This document shows, in pieces, positions 1 to 6,744 of a stretch of 35,542 bases of DNA (position 1 is its first letter; every line of letters starts with the position of its first letter). The position numbers and the translations under genes are program-made. The stretch is from positions 1 to 35,542 of the forward strand of contig JAQQAM010000208.1 in the NCBI GenBank assembly GCA_028532905.1, written 5' to 3'. The stretch comes from Spirochaetales bacterium (lineage in GTDB: Bacteria > Spirochaetota > Spirochaetia > DSM-2461). The notes beneath the pieces are model-generated. The model was not told where the DNA came from. It was given only the letters and a program-made list of their open reading frames with translations, and ran no database searches.

Positions 1-133
1 GTTCATCCACTAATAAACTGAACAAAGAAACGGGATAATCAATACCTGTTTCGAGAGAATTGATTTTCTGAAGAATACCGTTCCCGGCATCAGTCTGACC
101 CCGGGAACCGTTGGCTCTGTCAAGTAAACCCAT
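1..133 (-). CDS. Unknown protein, N-terminal 44 residues only (cut by window edge)
   Basis: An ATG on the minus strand shares its A with the TGA stop of the upstream acidic-repeat gene (TGATG), so the two are probably translationally coupled. The readable part begins MGLLDRANGS, and residues 22-44 (QKINSLETGIDYPVSLFSLL then VDE) stay open to the window edge. The last stretch looks like the start of an amphipathic helical region. I do not recognise the family. The coupling suggests that it works with, or is co-expressed with, the acidic repeat protein. The call as a gene rests on the overlap geometry and the open frame only. Confidence 0.6.
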   Translation of the reverse strand, partial: MGLLDRANGSRGQTDAGNGILQKINSLETGIDYPVSLFSLLVDE

Positions 134-3100
134 CAGCTGGTTATTCCAAGTTCCTCAAATATCTTTTTGTAAACCTCAAAATGTTCGCTGCGGGCAAACT
201 CCTGAATCTTTTCTTCAGGAAGAGATTCAAGCAGCTGATCCATATACGTGAGAATCTCCCGTATTTCTTCCCTCAGCTCCGGCGGAAGCTTTTTCAGGCT
301 GGCACTGCTGTTGGCTTCTTCAAGGTATGAACGAGACTTGTCAGGGGAGGGCTGAATCGTATTCTCCCTGTTTTTATCCTGTGAAACCGAAGCAGAATCA
401 ACGGGGGTACTGTGTTCTTCAACTGGTTCTTCAATTTCATTGCTGAATACAAATTCCTCAGGCGCCTCTTCAAGTTCTATTTCATTATCCTCAGATTCTA
501 ACTCCTCTGCTTCCAGGGGTTCTTCAGAAAGGTCTGCAGGAAGATCGATTGATATGACATCATCCTCTTCCTCATCTTCTGGTTCAGAGGCAGATAAATT
601 CTCATTCAAACCGTCAGTCAGATCATCAGGTACATCATCCAGATCTATTTCTATGGTTTCTGTCTCTTCGTTCAGCTCTTCAGGCTCATCTTCAGGTATA
701 GCCAGAGCTTCCAGAGAATTCAGATCGATTTCCTCAGTACCGGGGAGTTCATCATCAGACATTGATGATTCCGCTTCGTCAAGGATGGAGTCTATAGAGT
801 CCAGTTCCTGCTGCATTTCATCATTGAGTTCAAAGGAATCGGGTTCTTCTGTATCAATGGTATCTGAAACAGGTTCGGAAGAAATATCAAGGGTTATTTC
901 ATCATCAGATTCGGTAATATTGGGTAATCCGTCATCTATTTCAAGATCATCAAAATTATCAACTTCCGGCAGTTCAGACGTATCCAGACTGATGACCTGT
1001 TCATCCTTTTCACTGAGATGATTCAACAGGTCCACAGATGAGGGTTCGGAAACTTCTTCTTCTGAGGAATCCGGGGCACTTTCTTCCAGATCATCAAAAT
1101 CATCAGAAATAGTGATGTCCTCAATATCCAGATTATCAAGATCGTCAAGATCATCAAGACTGGATAACTCGGCAGCCTCTTCTTCCGGTGCTTCCGGAAT
1201 ATCAAGTTCATCCAGATCCATATCAAGTTCATCAACATCTGATTCTAAGGAAAGATCATCTATAATCTCATCAGAATCATCATTCAGATCTTCACCAAGA
1301 TCTACAATTTCACCTTCATCAAATTCCTCGTCCTGATCATCAGAAAGGGTAAGGTCGAAATCAAAATCCTCATCATCCTCTTCATCCCTGAGCTCTGCTG
1401 CAGGGGAGGAATCAAGATCATCAAGATCATCCAGTGAGACTTCTTCAATTTCATCTATTTCAAGATCCACTTCAGGAGCGGATTCTTCTTCATTGCCGGA
1501 ATCATCAAGGTCAAACCCAAACTCATCCAGACTGACTTCTTCAATTTCATCTTCCAGATCTGATTCACTATGATCAGCAACGGGACTCATCGATTCTTCC
1601 TCATCGCCGGTTAAATCAAGGATCAGTTCATCTTCATCGATCAAAAGATCATCGTCCAGGCTGAGCTCTTCGGTATCCAGTGAGATATCTTCGTCCAGGC
1701 TGAGCTCTTCTGTGTCCATAGATATGTCTTCATCAAGGCTAAGCTCTTCGGTATCCGGTGATAGATCGTCGTCCAAACCGATTTCTTCGGTATCCAGAGA
1801 GAGGTCCTCATCAAGGCTAAGCTCTTCTGTATCCAGAGAAAGATCGTCGTCTAGACTGAGTTCCTCTGTATCCAGTGAAAGATCTTCATCCAGACTGAGT
1901 TCCTCTGTATCCAGTGAAAGATCGTCGTCCAGTCTGAGCTCTTCGGTATCCAGTGAAAGATCGTCATCCAGACTGAGTTCCTCTGTATCCAGTGAAATAT
2001 CGTCGTCCAGACTGAGCTCTTCTGTATCCAGTGAAAGATCTTCATCCAGACTGAGTTCTTCTGTATCCAGTGAAATATCGTCGTCCAGACTGAGTTCTTC
2101 TGTGTCCAGAGATATGTCATCGTCCAGACTGAGTTCTTCTGTGTCCAGAGATATGTCATCGTCAAGGCTGAGTTCTTCTGTGTCCAGTGAAATGTCTTCA
2201 TCGAGGCTGAGCTCTTCTGTATCCAGTGAAAGATCTTCATCCAGACTGAGTTCCTCTGTGTCCAGTGAAAGATCTTCATCCAGGCTGATTTCTTCGGTAT
2301 CCAGAGATAGTTCATCCTCCGGTTCAGAAGCATCGGACTCATCATTCGGAATATCATCTGCTTCCGACAGCATGGATAAGCCGGGATCTTCCTGTTCAAG
2401 TTCTGTGTTTTCAACTTCTTCAACAGTCATTTCAGCTGTATTGAAAATATTATCCAGCTCATCACCTGTCAGGACAATAGATTCATCGTCATCTTCATCA
2501 AAGAATCCGCTGTTTTGAGAATCATCTTTATCAGTTGGGCGGGGAGAGGATTCATTCAGATCAAGCTGTTTTCTGATATCAAGAATCTCCTCTTTTATGG
2601 AAGAGAGGTCCTGTTCAATTTTGGAAAGGAGTTCTGTCTGTTTTTCAACAAGAGACAGGGCCGCATCTGAAACCAAAGAAGCTTCAGGCTCAGGTTCCAG
2701 TTCAGGACTGTCTTTCAGTTCAATGGAATTCCCGGGCAGAAAATCTTCGGCAGCTTCCAGGTCATTATCGTCGAGTTCCATTTGCTCGTCGCCTTCATCC
2801 CAGGGAGCATTGTCCAGTTCTTCATCTTCTTCAGGAGACCAGTTTCCGTCAGCCATGGATATGAGTTCATCCTCTTCTTCCGGTGAGATTAGGTCATCAC
2901 CAAAGTCATCCATATCGGGAAGTTCGTATTCATCATCCGATTCATTCAGATCATTCATGAAGTCATCAGAGAAATCATTCTCCTCGCCTGTTTCCAGGGG
3001 ATTTTCATTCAGGCTGAAATCATCATCTGTATCATTGTCGCTGATATCAAGATCATCAAAGTTCAGATCATCAAGGTTTTCCTCTTCGATCGAAACAGTT

Positions 3101-3192
3101 TCAGTTTCCACTGCTGTATCATTAAGGTCTTTTTTTACCCATGTACCATAATTTTCAAGTTCAATATTATTGTTATCTATTTCCCTGGCCAT
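133..3192 (-). CDS. Giant acidic Asp/Glu/Leu/Ser-rich repeat protein, function unknown
   Basis: The protein has 1019 residues, is extremely acidic and contains no cysteine that I can find. It has no signal peptide or membrane segment, so it is probably cytoplasmic. In order it shows: a short N-terminus with a few Trp residues in acidic context; a probable coiled coil around residues 180-215 (SLVEKQTELLSKIEQDL and on); a central block of 17 tandem 13-residue units of the type SLDTEELSLDEDL; more irregular acidic Leu/Asp sequence; and a C-terminal region of about 55 residues (LPPELREEIREILTYMDQLL onward) that looks like a folded helical domain. The start has a GGAG site 6 bases upstream. The gene overlaps the next one by one base. 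It resembles FimV-type acidic scaffolds in composition only, and I can assign no function. Long Ser-rich ORFs on the other strand are a by-product of its codons. Confidence 0.85.
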   Translation of the reverse strand: MAREIDNNNIELENYGTWVKKDLNDTAVETETVSIEEENLDDLNFDDLDISDNDTDDDFSLNENPLETGEENDFSDDFMNDLNESDDEYELPDMDDFGDDLISPEEEDELISMADGNWSPEEDEELDNAPWDEGDEQMELDDNDLEAAEDFLPGNSIELKDSPELEPEPEASLVSDAALSLVEKQTELLSKIEQDLSSIKEEILDIRKQLDLNESSPRPTDKDDSQNSGFFDEDDDESIVLTGDELDNIFNTAEMTVEEVENTELEQEDPGLSMLSEADDIPNDESDASEPEDELSLDTEEISLDEDLSLDTEELSLDEDLSLDTEELSLDEDISLDTEELSLDDDISLDTEELSLDDDISLDTEELSLDDDISLDTEELSLDEDLSLDTEELSLDDDISLDTEELSLDDDLSLDTEELRLDDDLSLDTEELSLDEDLSLDTEELSLDDDLSLDTEELSLDEDLSLDTEEIGLDDDLSPDTEELSLDEDISMDTEELSLDEDISLDTEELSLDDDLLIDEDELILDLTGDEEESMSPVADHSESDLEDEIEEVSLDEFGFDLDDSGNEEESAPEVDLEIDEIEEVSLDDLDDLDSSPAAELRDEEDDEDFDFDLTLSDDQDEEFDEGEIVDLGEDLNDDSDEIIDDLSLESDVDELDMDLDELDIPEAPEEEAAELSSLDDLDDLDNLDIEDITISDDFDDLEESAPDSSEEEVSEPSSVDLLNHLSEKDEQVISLDTSELPEVDNFDDLEIDDGLPNITESDDEITLDISSEPVSDTIDTEEPDSFELNDEMQQELDSIDSILDEAESSMSDDELPGTEEIDLNSLEALAIPEDEPEELNEETETIEIDLDDVPDDLTDGLNENLSASEPEDEEEDDVISIDLPADLSEEPLEAEELESEDNEIELEEAPEEFVFSNEIEEPVEEHSTPVDSASVSQDKNRENTIQPSPDKSRSYLEEANSSASLKKLPPELREEIREILTYMDQLLESLPEEKIQEFARSEHFEVYKKIFEELGITS
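1645..2307 (-). repeat. 17 tandem copies of a 39-bp coding repeat
   Basis: The tract is exactly 663 bases, that is 17 x 39, with no length variants, and it stays in frame within the acidic protein. Each unit encodes S-L-D-T-E-E-L-S-L-D-(E/D)-D-(L/I). Most variation is E or D at position 11 and L or I at position 13. Single departures are an Arg and a Gly at position 8, and Pro or Met at position 2 near the 3' end. A degenerate unit (LIDEDELILDL) follows. Such a tract could gain or lose units by slippage or recombination without breaking the frame. Confidence 0.95.
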
Positions 3193-3342: not shown

Positions 3343-3777
3343 ATGAATAAACTAAATTTCTACTGGCCTTTGCTGACTGCTTTGTTATTTTACTCTCTAT
3401 TCAGTTTCCTGTGGGGTAGTACCGGGTTGAATGCTCTTCAGGAAATGGAAAGCAGAAAAGCTGTTCTAGAAAAAAATCTTTCCGAATTGAGTTCCATCAA
3501 TGAGCAGCTCAACGAAGATCTACTGTCCTTAAGCTCAGATCCTGAGCGTATTGCTGTACAGTCCAGAAACCTTGGTTATATTCAAAGCAATGAAAAAATG
3601 CTTTTTGCCAATCTGAGCAGCCTTGGAAGTTCTCAGCTGGATGTGGGTAAAATACTGCATCTGGAATCCATGGACCGGGAAAACGGAAATCTGGTAAAAG
3701 TCATAACACTTCTTATTTTCCTGACCGGACAGTCTTTCAGTATTTTAATGAACAGAAAAAAAAGACCGGCAGTATAA
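3343..3777 (+). CDS. FtsB/DivIC-like septum-formation protein
   Basis: The 144-residue protein has an N-terminal membrane segment (residues 8-25), then a coiled-coil stretch (about 32-65). It then has the sequence DPERIAVQSRNLGYIQSNEK, which matches the post-coil block typical of the FtsB/DivIC family. These proteins sit in the inner membrane and link FtsQ/DivIB and FtsL to the divisome. Unusually, a second hydrophobic segment lies near the C-terminus (about 118-136), followed by a basic tail, so this may be a two-membrane-pass variant. The gene is transcribed alone, divergent from the acidic-repeat gene. Family assignment is fairly firm, the exact divisome role is inferred. Confidence 0.72.
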   Translation: MNKLNFYWPLLTALLFYSLFSFLWGSTGLNALQEMESRKAVLEKNLSELSSINEQLNEDLLSLSSDPERIAVQSRNLGYIQSNEKMLFANLSSLGSSQLDVGKILHLESMDRENGNLVKVITLLIFLTGQSFSILMNRKKRPAV

Positions 3778-3807: not shown

Positions 3808-4611
3808 TCAGTCTATTACTTTGACGTTTTGACCCGAAAGGGATTCCGGATTGGCCGGATTAACCAGATGATCTCTGAAGAGTGTCTCTCTCTGGTAAAG
3901 GAGTTCCATCGGTACCTGATAGGCTTCTTCCAGATAATCTCGATGGAGAACAGTGGAAGAAGGACCCATGCAGATTGTGTGGTCTTTGTAGAAAAGCAGA
4001 GCATTGTCAGAATATTTTGTGGATAAATCCAGTTCATGAATGGAATAGTAGACACTCACATCCCTGGAGCGGCTGTAATCCTTGATATATTCAAGAATCG
4101 TCTCTTTCCATTTGTGTTCCAGGGCAAAAACAGGCTCATCCATCATTATGAAGGGAGACCCGTAAAGCAGACTGAAGGCAACACAGATTTTCTGCATATC
4201 TCCCTTACTGTTTTCCTGAAACTTTTTACCCAGGGCATTTTCCAGCCCGAAGGTTTTTACCATTTCTCCCACTGGATTCTGTCCGCTCTGCTGGCTCTGT
4301 TCAAATACAAAATGGAGCAGGTCTTCCACATTCTCATCTGACTCGAATTCCATATTCTGATAAATAAATGAAACAAGCCTGTTTCTGACTGCCTCATCCC
4401 TGATGTCTCTGGAATCCATTCCATTGATCAGTACAGACCCCTCTGCGGGTAATAATCTTCCCCCTGCCAGCAGAAGAAAGGTACTCTTGCCTGTTCCGTT
4501 CTGACCGACAAGAGTGGTAATCCCACCGGGAAGAGACATACTTATGTTCTTGAATAGATTTGATTCCTCATAGCCGAAGCTGAGATTCTCCAGACTTATG
4601 GATCCGCTCAT
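3808..4611 (-). CDS. ABC transporter ATP-binding protein (lone ATPase)
   Basis: This 267-residue nucleotide-binding subunit has Walker A GQNGTGKS at 36-43, a Q-loop Gln near 85, Walker B with catalytic Glu (IMMDEP, 155-160) and an H-loop His at 192. The signature is a weak variant (SKGDMQK, about 135-141) in place of LSGGQ. No permease gene is adjacent, so the substrate and direction are unknown. It could pair with a distant membrane subunit or act as a non-transport ATPase. Its ATG overlaps the gpgS stop by one base (TAATG), so it is translated as part of that operon, and the terminator follows about 20 bases after its stop. Confidence 0.88.
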   Translation of the reverse strand: MSGSISLENLSFGYEESNLFKNISMSLPGGITTLVGQNGTGKSTFLLLAGGRLLPAEGSVLINGMDSRDIRDEAVRNRLVSFIYQNMEFESDENVEDLLHFVFEQSQQSGQNPVGEMVKTFGLENALGKKFQENSKGDMQKICVAFSLLYGSPFIMMDEPVFALEHKWKETILEYIKDYSRSRDVSVYYSIHELDLSTKYSDNALLFYKDHTICMGPSSTVLHRDYLEEAYQVPMELLYQRETLFRDHLVNPANPESLSGQNVKVID

Positions 4612-5585
4612 TATTTTCCCCGTTTACGTTTTTTATATTCCGGTATGGTGTTCATGGGCGGTCTTTCTGCTTCGGGAATATTAAACTCAACAGTTTCAAA
4701 TATTTCATCTTTCACCTGAAACTGTCTGAATACCGTAGGCAGTTCATCAAATTTCTGCAGTATTCCATATTGAACCAGTCTGTTGAGAAAGGTCTGAAGA
4801 ATACCGAAAGACATCTTCCCCAAGGCTCTGGTTGTCTGGTTTCTGTGAACCCTCTGATCAAGATCCGTCTGTGCAAATGCGCTCATACCGTATTTCTGAT
4901 ACACATCCAGGAGGTGGGAGGTTTCCACTCCGTAGCCGATGGGAAAGGGGATGCTCTCCAGAACTTCCCTTCTTACAGCATATTCTCCTGAAAGCGGCTG
5001 TATTATAGCGGTTAAGTCCGGAAAAAACAATGAGAACAGGGGTCTTGTCAGAATTTCGGTTACACGCCCGCCTCCGGAAGGTCTAATGCTGTCAGAAAAG
5101 GCCAGGGGCCTGTCGTAGAATGCTTTTACATACTTAACTTCCGGTCTTTTGATCAGAGGGCCTACCATTCCGTAAACAAATCGGGGGTGAATATTCTTGA
5201 TATCCGCATCGATATAGACAATGATATCCCCCTTCAGCTGATAAATGGCTTTCCAGAGGTTTTCACCTTTCCCTCTCATAGGTTCCAGATCAGGAAGTAT
5301 TTCTGATGCCAGATAGGTGTCGGCTCCGAATGATGCGGCAATTTCAAGAGTTTTGTCTTCAGAACCGGAATCGATAACGGCAATCTCATCCAGAAGAGGG
5401 TAGCGGTTCATCAGTTCCGATTTAAACATCACTACTTCTTTACCGATTGTTTTTTCTTCATTGAGAGTCGGGATACACAGCGAAATGGTCAAACCCTGTT
5501 TTTCTTTTTCTTCAATCAGCTCTTTAATGTCTTCAAAGTTGGAATGGTGGTATGTATTGTTTTTAAGCCAATTATTTATATTCAC
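4611..5585 (-). CDS. gpgS: Glucosyl-3-phosphoglycerate synthase (GT81-type)
   Basis: This retaining glycosyltransferase would transfer glucose from an NDP-glucose to 3-phosphoglycerate, the first step to glucosylglycerate, a compatible solute and a precursor of larger glycolipids or polysaccharides. In the 324-residue form it has the nucleotide-binding fold start (SLCIPTLNEE, 35-44), VIDSGS at 70-75, the GKGE lysine (K106), metal-binding DAD at 126-128, GGGRVTE at 171-177, QPLSGEYA at 196-203 and the RVHRN histidine (H247). All match the mycobacterial enzyme as I recall it. I chose the GTG at 5585, which has AAGGGG 7 bases upstream. An in-frame TTG at 5603 would add six residues but has no better site. 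It overlaps the M20-like gene by 14 bases. No glucosyl-3-phosphoglycerate phosphatase is visible here. Confidence 0.85.
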   Translation of the reverse strand: MNINNWLKNNTYHHSNFEDIKELIEEKEKQGLTISLCIPTLNEEKTIGKEVVMFKSELMNRYPLLDEIAVIDSGSEDKTLEIAASFGADTYLASEILPDLEPMRGKGENLWKAIYQLKGDIIVYIDADIKNIHPRFVYGMVGPLIKRPEVKYVKAFYDRPLAFSDSIRPSGGGRVTEILTRPLFSLFFPDLTAIIQPLSGEYAVRREVLESIPFPIGYGVETSHLLDVYQKYGMSAFAQTDLDQRVHRNQTTRALGKMSFGILQTFLNRLVQYGILQKFDELPTVFRQFQVKDEIFETVEFNIPEAERPPMNTIPEYKKRKRGK

Positions 5586-6744
5586 TGCAGTACCCCTTAT
5601 CAACGGCCTGAAGAAGAGCTATCAGCTGGGCAATACCTTTCTTCATGGGTTCAATATTTATCATTTCATCAATTTCACCCAGTCTTTCACCATCAGTCAG
5701 ACCAATTGTGAGTGCGGGAATGTCTTTGTCTATAAAAGCGGACAGTTCGGATGTACTGGGTGACAATCTGGGAGTCACATCCAGGTTCTCCAGAATATCC
5801 CGGCTGACTTTATTCAGAGGATGTGAAAATTGTGTTCCTCCCGGTTTCCGTCTGGCTATTTCAAGAAAGCGCACATTGGCGCCTGTCATGGAGGTCATCT
5901 CTTCAGCGAGGGACTGGATCCTGACCGCCAGATTTTCCACCATCTCTTCTGATTCACTACGTACTTCAAACCGGAGTGACGCCTTCATTGGATTTTTATT
6001 ATAGGAAGTTCCGCCGCTGATGGAGCCTAATATAAAACTGGTTTTCGGTTTCAGGGGAAGGGGAATTTCCAGGAGCTTGTTGATCATTTCATTCATATTG
6101 ACAATAGCGCCTACTGAACTGAAGCGGGTCCAGTCATACTCTTCGGGAACCTCGTACTTGATCTCTCCCCTGAGCATCCCGATGGAAGAATAGCTTAATC
6201 GTCCCAGTTTGACACCTTCCAGACAAATACCCGCGGTAACCGGGTTTTTGAAATTCTCCATAAAGAAGCGTAGCCCTTCAATATCTCCGTTTCCCAGGCT
6301 CCGGGAGGAGCCCATAAGAATAAGATTCGATTCGAATTCAATTCCAAGCTTTTCAAGTATTATGGGCAATGTCGCCAGAGTCGCCAGACCCAGTCCGTTA
6401 TCACCGACGCCGGGCCCGATCACTTTATCCGGTTCCACTGTAATCGTATGATCCACATTGGAGGGATAAATTGTATCCAGATGAGCTACAACAAGTATAT
6501 TACTGTCTCTGGATTTTCCCGGAATAATACCAAGAGCATTTCCCTTCTCATCTGAGGAACAGTTCTGCAGGTTGTATTCTGTAAACCTGTTGAGCAGGAA
6601 TCGGTTCCTGTCCTGTTCTTCGAATGTGGGCGCCGGTATCTCACTGAGCATAATAAGATTCGTTAATAAGGTCTCTTTCAGTTCTTCGACAGCTTTCTCG
6701 TATTCGGGAAGTCTGTCCAGAATTTCTTGGCAGCTTGTATTCAT
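5572..6744 (-). CDS. M20-family metallopeptidase-like protein, active site degenerate
   Basis: The 390-residue protein has the M20 fold pattern: VVAHLDTIYP (residues 85-94, His88/Asp90), GPGVGDNGLG (110-119, Asp115), LEG with Glu176, and the C-terminal block STSELSAFIDKDIPALTIG. The usual Glu-Glu pair (base and metal ligand) is missing: the place reads GSSRSLGNGD (145-154). The C-terminal His ligand is missing too: the block reads GERLGEIDEM. It may therefore be a non-hydrolysing relative or one with altered chemistry. The start at 6744 has AGGA 6 bases upstream. An extension to 6819 would add 25 hydrophobic residues without ribosome-site support and was not used. It is the first gene of the operon with gpgS and the ABC ATPase. 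Confidence 0.8.
   Translation of the reverse strand: MNTSCQEILDRLPEYEKAVEELKETLLTNLIMLSEIPAPTFEEQDRNRFLLNRFTEYNLQNCSSDEKGNALGIIPGKSRDSNILVVAHLDTIYPSNVDHTITVEPDKVIGPGVGDNGLGLATLATLPIILEKLGIEFESNLILMGSSRSLGNGDIEGLRFFMENFKNPVTAGICLEGVKLGRLSYSSIGMLRGEIKYEVPEEYDWTRFSSVGAIVNMNEMINKLLEIPLPLKPKTSFILGSISGGTSYNKNPMKASLRFEVRSESEEMVENLAVRIQSLAEEMTSMTGANVRFLEIARRKPGGTQFSHPLNKVSRDILENLDVTPRLSPSTSELSAFIDKDIPALTIGLTDGERLGEIDEMINIEPMKKGIAQLIALLQAVDKGYCSEYK

What the first reader, a model, noticed from the sequence alone, without database searches (positions are those of the whole stretch)
133..3192. Cysteine-free 1019-residue acidic protein with 17 exact 39-bp repeats
The sequence shows 17 units of 13 residues with no length change over 663 bases, in a protein dominated by Asp, Glu, Leu and Ser and ending in an apparently folded C-terminal helical domain. 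I know no function for this architecture. A cytoplasmic polyanion of this size could be a scaffold, a counter-ion reservoir or a condensate former (all inference). The repeat number could vary between strains.
Basis: partly seen in the sequence, partly recalled or inferred. Interest (0 to 1): 0.6.

Follow-up and report, generated by a model that had tools for sequence, protein, structure and literature searches.

The report
Spirochaete flagella-linked acidic scaffold protein
The long acidic repeat protein is one species' version of a single-copy protein found almost throughout the spirochaetes, whose few conserved parts and gene neighbours point to an uncharacterised flexible scaffold of the flagellar machinery, while the repeats that drew attention are a fast-changing spacer.

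Summary
The gene is real: a Cys-free 1019-aa ORF with 17 units of 39 bp in perfect register. The units are not identical (17 distinct DNA units, 9 distinct peptides), but 79% of single-base codon differences are synonymous (22-30% expected), so the peptide is selected. The repeats are not the essence. Sister species carry 18-, 21- or 42-bp arrays there, and many homologues carry none. Four islands are conserved: an N-terminal motif, a coiled coil, a linear motif (consensus DETIALTGDELDNIL) and a C-terminal three-helix domain. That domain occurs once per genome in 198 of 297 Spirochaetota genomes, plus diverged copies in a Brachyspira-like family. It is absent from FliG-less (Sphaerochaeta-like) and from flagellated but Maf-less (Borrelia-like) families. 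The next gene is nearly always a GAF/dead-GGDEF protein. Further neighbours are Maf (MptE-like) glycosyltransferases, FliS, FapA or FliM, depending on class. Best reading: an unnamed, spirochaete-specific, intrinsically disordered adaptor of flagellar or flagellin assembly, built like PopZ or HubP but sharing no detected family with them. No profile or solved structure matched it, and I found no paper on it. The flagellar link rests on co-occurrence and gene order; the mechanism is inferred.

The parts
133..3192 (-). gene A: acidic disordered protein, 1019 aa
   Evidence: ORF; homologues
3109..3183 (-). conserved N-terminal motif, residues 4-28 (LENYGTWVK; LEQYGVWVK(S/A)GPED in relatives)
2563..2640 (-). 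short coiled coil, residues 185-210
   Evidence: helix with pLDDT 92-95 in a homologue
2410..2529 (-). island with linear motif DDESIVLTGDELDNIFNTAE, residues 222-261 (motif core 2428-2490)
1648..2310 (-). 17 tandem 39-bp units (13 aa, consensus LSLDTEELSLDED), variable spacer
136..294 (-). conserved C-terminal three-helix domain, residues 967-1019
1..133 (-). start of gene B (MGLLDRANGS...), ATG overlaps the stop of A, cut by the contig end; the rest is at the start of contig C121 (L111)
3343..3777 (+). divergent DivIC/FtsB-like gene, conserved neighbour in class Spirochaetia
   Evidence: PF04977 E 9e-12; 51 loci

Best explanation
Gene A encodes a cytoplasmic, intrinsically disordered scaffold that serves the flagellar system of spirochaetes. 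Shown by sequence: long, variable, strongly acidic linkers join four conserved elements (N-terminal motif, coiled coil, the IALTGDELDNIL linear motif, and a predicted three-helix C-terminal domain). A is single copy and nearly always paired, often with overlapping stop and start codons, with B, a GAF protein with a GGDEF-like domain that has lost its signature. Inferred: the coiled coil and C-terminal domain self-associate and/or bind B. The linear motif(s) and N-terminal motif dock flagellar clients, probably proteins that handle flagellin or the export and C-ring apparatus (the neighbours are Maf glycosyltransferases, FliS, FapA or FliM). The acidic repeats are an extended self-repelling spacer whose length drifts but whose acidic S-L-D/E character is selected. 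It would thus work like PopZ or HubP, gathering clients at one place, perhaps the cell pole or the flagellar base.
For: C-terminal domain in 198 of 297 Spirochaetota genomes, one match in every listed genome; a wider profile adds 9 of 10 tested genomes of a Brachyspira-like family and still finds no convincing match in 35 Borrelia-like and 20 FliG-less Sphaerochaeta-like genomes. Overlap with PF01973: 197 of 198 carriers also have it, and only 1 of 61 PF01973-negative genomes has A (compared by handle); FliG is missing in 25 genomes, only one of which (draft G073) has A as far as the lists show. Neighbours: Maf homologues downstream in 67 loci, a B-like protein in 72, C (TM, acidic tract, GGDEF remnant) in 52; FliS within 40 bp upstream in 5 loci of three families; FapA downstream in 3 of these; FliM about 2.8 kb downstream in 2 loci. 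Conserved islands and disorder. Purifying selection on the repeat peptide.
Against: No interaction, localisation or phenotype data exist here. In class Spirochaetia the Maf association could be operon co-inheritance. Some classes have ATP-synthase or other non-flagellar genes upstream (L099, L100, L102, L103, L122). Borrelia-like genomes have flagella and lack A, so A is not a universal flagellar part. Self-association of the C-terminal domain was not tested, and Foldseek found no structural match.
Confidence: 0.5

Rival explanations
1. A is specifically the scaffold of flagellin glycosylation: it gathers the two Maf-type enzymes, B and C, so that flagellin is modified before export.
For: A-B-Maf-Maf-C operon in class Spirochaetia; A is absent from flagellated Borrelia-like genomes that lack PF01973 and present with PF01973 in 197 of 198 carriers.
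Against: In several other classes no Maf lies beside A-B, and FliS, FapA or FliM do; the co-inheritance of an operon explains part of the correlation. That MptE-like proteins here act on flagellin was not tested.
Confidence: 0.2
2. A is a general cell-pole or division hub (PopZ-like) whose clients are not flagellar.
For: PopZ-like layout (PMC9512792); a divergent DivIC/FtsB-like neighbour in 51 loci.
Against: Missing from FliG-less relatives that still divide, and from Borrelia-like genomes; the DivIC neighbour is on the other strand and confined to one class; neighbours in other classes are often flagellar.
Confidence: 0.13
3. A and B form a signalling adaptor: B (GAF, dead GGDEF) senses a ligand or nucleotide and A relays it to a response-regulator-like target through its FliM-like peptide, e.g. 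CheY or FlhG.
For: B domains; C also has a GGDEF remnant; the linear motif resembles the FliM/FliY EIDALL peptide, with own FliM in the top 8e-5 of windows; CheY-P binds that peptide (PMC9126983) and FlhG contacts the FliM N-terminus (PMC12826062).
Against: The resemblance was noticed post hoc, and a profile search with the motif did not return FliM; no ligand is known for B.
Confidence: 0.12
4. A is a bulk polyanion (counter-ion reservoir or crowding agent) with no specific partners.
For: Net charge about -385 and 40% acidic residues.
Against: Four strongly conserved motifs, operon pairing, phylogenetic link to flagella and Maf; a mildly acidic (19% D+E) orthologue exists in the 1.14-Mb Treponema-like genome.
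Confidence: 0.05

Closest known systems
PopZ (Caulobacter polar condensate scaffold; PMC9512792)
   Same: Short N-terminal client-binding region, acidic disordered spacer whose length and charge matter, C-terminal helical domain; cytoplasmic, no TM segment.
   Different: No PopZ family match by sequence; spacer about ten times longer and Leu/Ser-rich rather than Pro-rich; extra internal linear motif and coiled coil; co-occurs with flagella and Maf; self-association untested.
HubP/FimV polar landmark proteins (PMC8789113)
   Same: Large, highly acidic region with D/E-rich repeats, coiled coil, small C-terminal helical domain, link to flagella.
   Different: No LysM domain, no transmembrane helix, no TPR or FimV profile hit; C-terminal domain unrelated by profile; predicted wholly cytoplasmic.
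Treponema pallidum acidic repeat protein Arp/TP0433 (PMC9531955)
   Same: Acidic tandem-repeat protein of a spirochaete with variable repeat number.
   Different: Arp has 60-bp repeats and is discussed as a cell-envelope protein; the A orthologue in the 1.14-Mb Treponema-like genome has no tandem repeats and sits in the A-B-Maf-Maf-C locus.
FliM/FliY N-terminal EIDALL peptide
   Same: Similar short acidic helix motif.
   Different: Embedded in a disordered protein rather than at a C-ring protein's N terminus; not detected by profile search.

Membership tests
PopZ | sequence match to a PopZ family profile | tested here: not met
   no family at E<=1 for the whole protein in Pfam or NCBIfam
PopZ | acidic disordered linker followed by C-terminal helical domain | tested here: met
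   AF2: disorder throughout, helices at the C terminus; composition
PopZ | C-terminal domain self-assembles into polar condensates | not testable with these tools
   needs an imaging or biochemical experiment
HubP/FimV | LysM domain and single transmembrane helix | tested here: not met
   no Pfam or NCBIfam match; maximum Kyte-Doolittle mean 0.62 over 19 residues
HubP/FimV | C-terminal TPR/FimV domain | tested here: not met
   C-terminal piece matches no such profile; no Foldseek hit
HubP/FimV | acidic D/E-rich repeats | tested here: met
T. pallidum Arp | 60-bp repeats | tested here: not met
   39-bp units here; none in the orthologue of the T. pallidum-sized genome
FliM/FliY EIDALL peptide | recognisable as the same motif by profile | tested here: inconclusive
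   FliM/FliY N-termini in the top 8e-5 of windows, but no FliM returned by profile search at E<=1

The most novel reading that the evidence does not exclude
A and B are an unrecognised, phylum-defining flagellar module of spirochaetes: a PopZ-like disordered hub that concentrates flagellin, its chaperone and Maf glycosyltransferases at the base of the periplasmic flagella, reading a signal through the dead-GGDEF partner and using a FliM-like peptide to engage CheY or FlhG.
Probability: 0.15. Interest if true: 0.85.

Novelty: new variant of a known kind. Interest (0 to 1): 0.58.

Why it matters
Spirochaetes (including those of syphilis and leptospirosis) swim with periplasmic flagella, and how these are placed at the poles and how flagellin is handled before export is only partly known. 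A single-copy gene pair conserved nearly throughout the phylum, next to flagellin-handling genes yet without family name or solved relative, is a concrete untested candidate. It is also a natural series of PopZ-like scaffolds in which total length varies from about 200 to almost 1,900 residues while the binding elements stay fixed.

Tried and rejected
Pfam and NCBIfam scans of the whole protein and pieces: nothing above cut-off; the weak MgtE_N and FliG_M hits of the C-terminal piece (E 0.002 and 0.016) are below curated cut-offs and were not believed. PDB by sequence profile and Foldseek: no relative. Profile search with the linear motif to find other carriers or FliM: only A proteins plus weak unrelated hits. 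A Patescibacteria hit (L080, 26 residues, E 1e-4) is probably noise. Arp was considered and rejected. Plus-strand ORFs over the gene (Ser/Arg-rich) are shadows of the acidic codons. Literature searches for spirochaete Maf, disordered flagellar scaffold and MptE-like proteins gave no paper on this protein; the library lacks most subscription journals.

Full report
OBSERVATION. The ORF at 133..3192 (minus) is intact, 1019 aa, Cys-free and 40% Asp+Glu. Seventeen 13-residue units occupy residues 295-515 (1648-2310) without indels. They are not exact copies: 17 different DNA units, 9 different peptides, mean pairwise DNA identity 82%. Changes are concentrated at third codon positions, and 79% of single-base codon differences are synonymous, against 22-30% expected. 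The tract is therefore old and its peptide selected, not a fresh slippage product.

WHAT IS CONSERVED. A window-by-window comparison with distant homologues gave four islands well above shuffled controls: residues 4-28, 185-210, 222-261 and 967-1019. The repeat region scored little above control. The third island holds a linear motif, consensus DETIALTGDELDNIL. It occurs once in nearly every class Spirochaetia protein and 3-6 times in several other classes: 72 hits in 65 proteins against 0.2 expected. In the alignment of 16 homologues the invariant columns lie mostly in the motif and the C-terminal domain. AlphaFold2 models the C-terminal domain as three helices with pLDDT 85-90. In a 586-aa homologue it leaves nearly everything else disordered, except the coiled coil (pLDDT 92-95), a short helix at the motif and one near the N terminus. 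No sequence profile and no PDB fold matched.

THE REPEATS ARE A VARIABLE SPACER. At the same place, congeners carry other arrays: 39 bp in G004 (at least 5 copies; the contig starts inside the array), 21 bp x 16.8 in G003, 42 bp in G002, 18 bp x 17 in L031 (the contig that matches G005). Many family members have almost no tandem sequence. Family members with complete ORFs range from 207 aa (L132) to 1890 aa (L074).

DISTRIBUTION. The C-terminal domain was found in 198 of 297 Spirochaetota genomes, one match each in every listed genome. In the same set PF01973 (MptE-like, the core of Maf flagellin glycosyltransferases) is in 236 and FliG_C in 272. Comparing handles: 197 have both A and PF01973, 1 has A alone (G234), 39 have PF01973 alone and 60 have neither. 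Of the 39, 26 belong to family f36, by size and content Brachyspira-like. A wider profile (A4) then found A in 9 of the 10 f36 genomes retested, and still no convincing match in 35 genomes of f20 (small genomes, FliG present, no PF01973: Borrelia-like) or 20 of f9 (no FliG: Sphaerochaeta-like), where one E=0.01 partial hit is taken as noise. A pattern scan of 84,980 species returned 49 spirochaete records and one doubtful other. One hit was titled Borreliella garinii, probably a mislabelled metagenome bin.

NEIGHBOURS. In class Spirochaetia the order is: divergent DivIC-like gene; A; B; two MptE-like proteins; often an opposite-strand gene; C, a one-TM protein with its own acidic tract and a GGDEF remnant. 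In the window B is cut by the contig end after about 43 residues. The rest of B, Maf1 and Maf2 are at the start of contig C121 of the same genome. In other classes B still follows A in most loci, while the Maf genes are mostly elsewhere. Instead FliS lies 15-39 bp upstream in five loci (L097, L104, L116, L119, L121), FapA downstream in three of them, and FliM about 2.8 kb downstream in two (L126, L129). B has GAF domains and a GGDEF-like C-terminal domain in several classes; no locus kept the GGDEF signature.

INTERPRETATION. A single-copy, phylum-wide gene whose neighbours change between classes but repeatedly belong to flagellin handling or the motor, and which is missing where flagella or Maf are missing, is most simply a flagellar accessory scaffold. 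Shown: sequence facts, conservation, co-occurrence, gene order, predicted order and disorder. Inferred: self-association, client docking, location. The layout resembles PopZ (PMC9512792) and HubP (PMC8789113), but sequence features tested for those families are not met, so it is described as working like them, not as a member. The resemblance of the linear motif to the FliM/FliY EIDALL peptide, which binds CheY-P (PMC9126983) and lies in the FliM N-terminus that FlhG contacts (PMC12826062), was noticed after the fact. Own FliM and FliY score in the top 8e-5 of windows, but a profile search did not return FliM, so this remains a lead.

LIMITS. No name, experiment or within-species repeat count is available. 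The literature library lacks most subscription journals. The Maf correlation in class Spirochaetia is partly built in by the shared operon; the FliS, FapA and FliM neighbourhoods in other classes are the more independent evidence.

Noticed in passing
L132 1048-1671 (genome G234): A minimal 207-aa version: N-terminal motif and C-terminal domain with hardly any acidic bulk, no B or Maf beside it, in a small-genome genus whose only FliG_C match is weak; possibly a relic.
   Followed up: partly
L081 7113-7964; L082 5996-6817; L050 10599-11438: An opposite-strand gene of about 270-285 aa sits between the second Maf and gene C in many loci; identity not tested.
   Followed up: no
L082 6837-8453: Gene C (one TM segment, acidic Ser/Asp tract, degenerate GGDEF in relatives) repeats the acidic-linker theme in a membrane protein of the same operon.
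   Followed up: partly
genomes G106, G101, G111: Brachyspira-like genomes have diverged homologues in open frames of 2000-2860 residues.
   Followed up: no
L131 7254-8342: A distant family has its own acidic unit of 13 residues (GGDEVSLDDELEL) in the A protein, possibly arisen independently.
   Followed up: no
L057, record DYOB01000028.1: Titled Borreliella garinii but carries A and a Maf homologue, which 35 Borrelia-like genomes lack; probably a mislabelled metagenome bin.
   Followed up: partly
L099 5096-7336 and L100, L102, L103, L112-L114: The B proteins carry their own repeated short motif (GLLxKA) at the N terminus, suggesting that B is multivalent too.
   Followed up: partly
window 4611-5603: Predicted glucosyl-3-phosphoglycerate synthase (NF010496, E 3e-118), a compatible-solute gene, close to A.
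   Followed up: no
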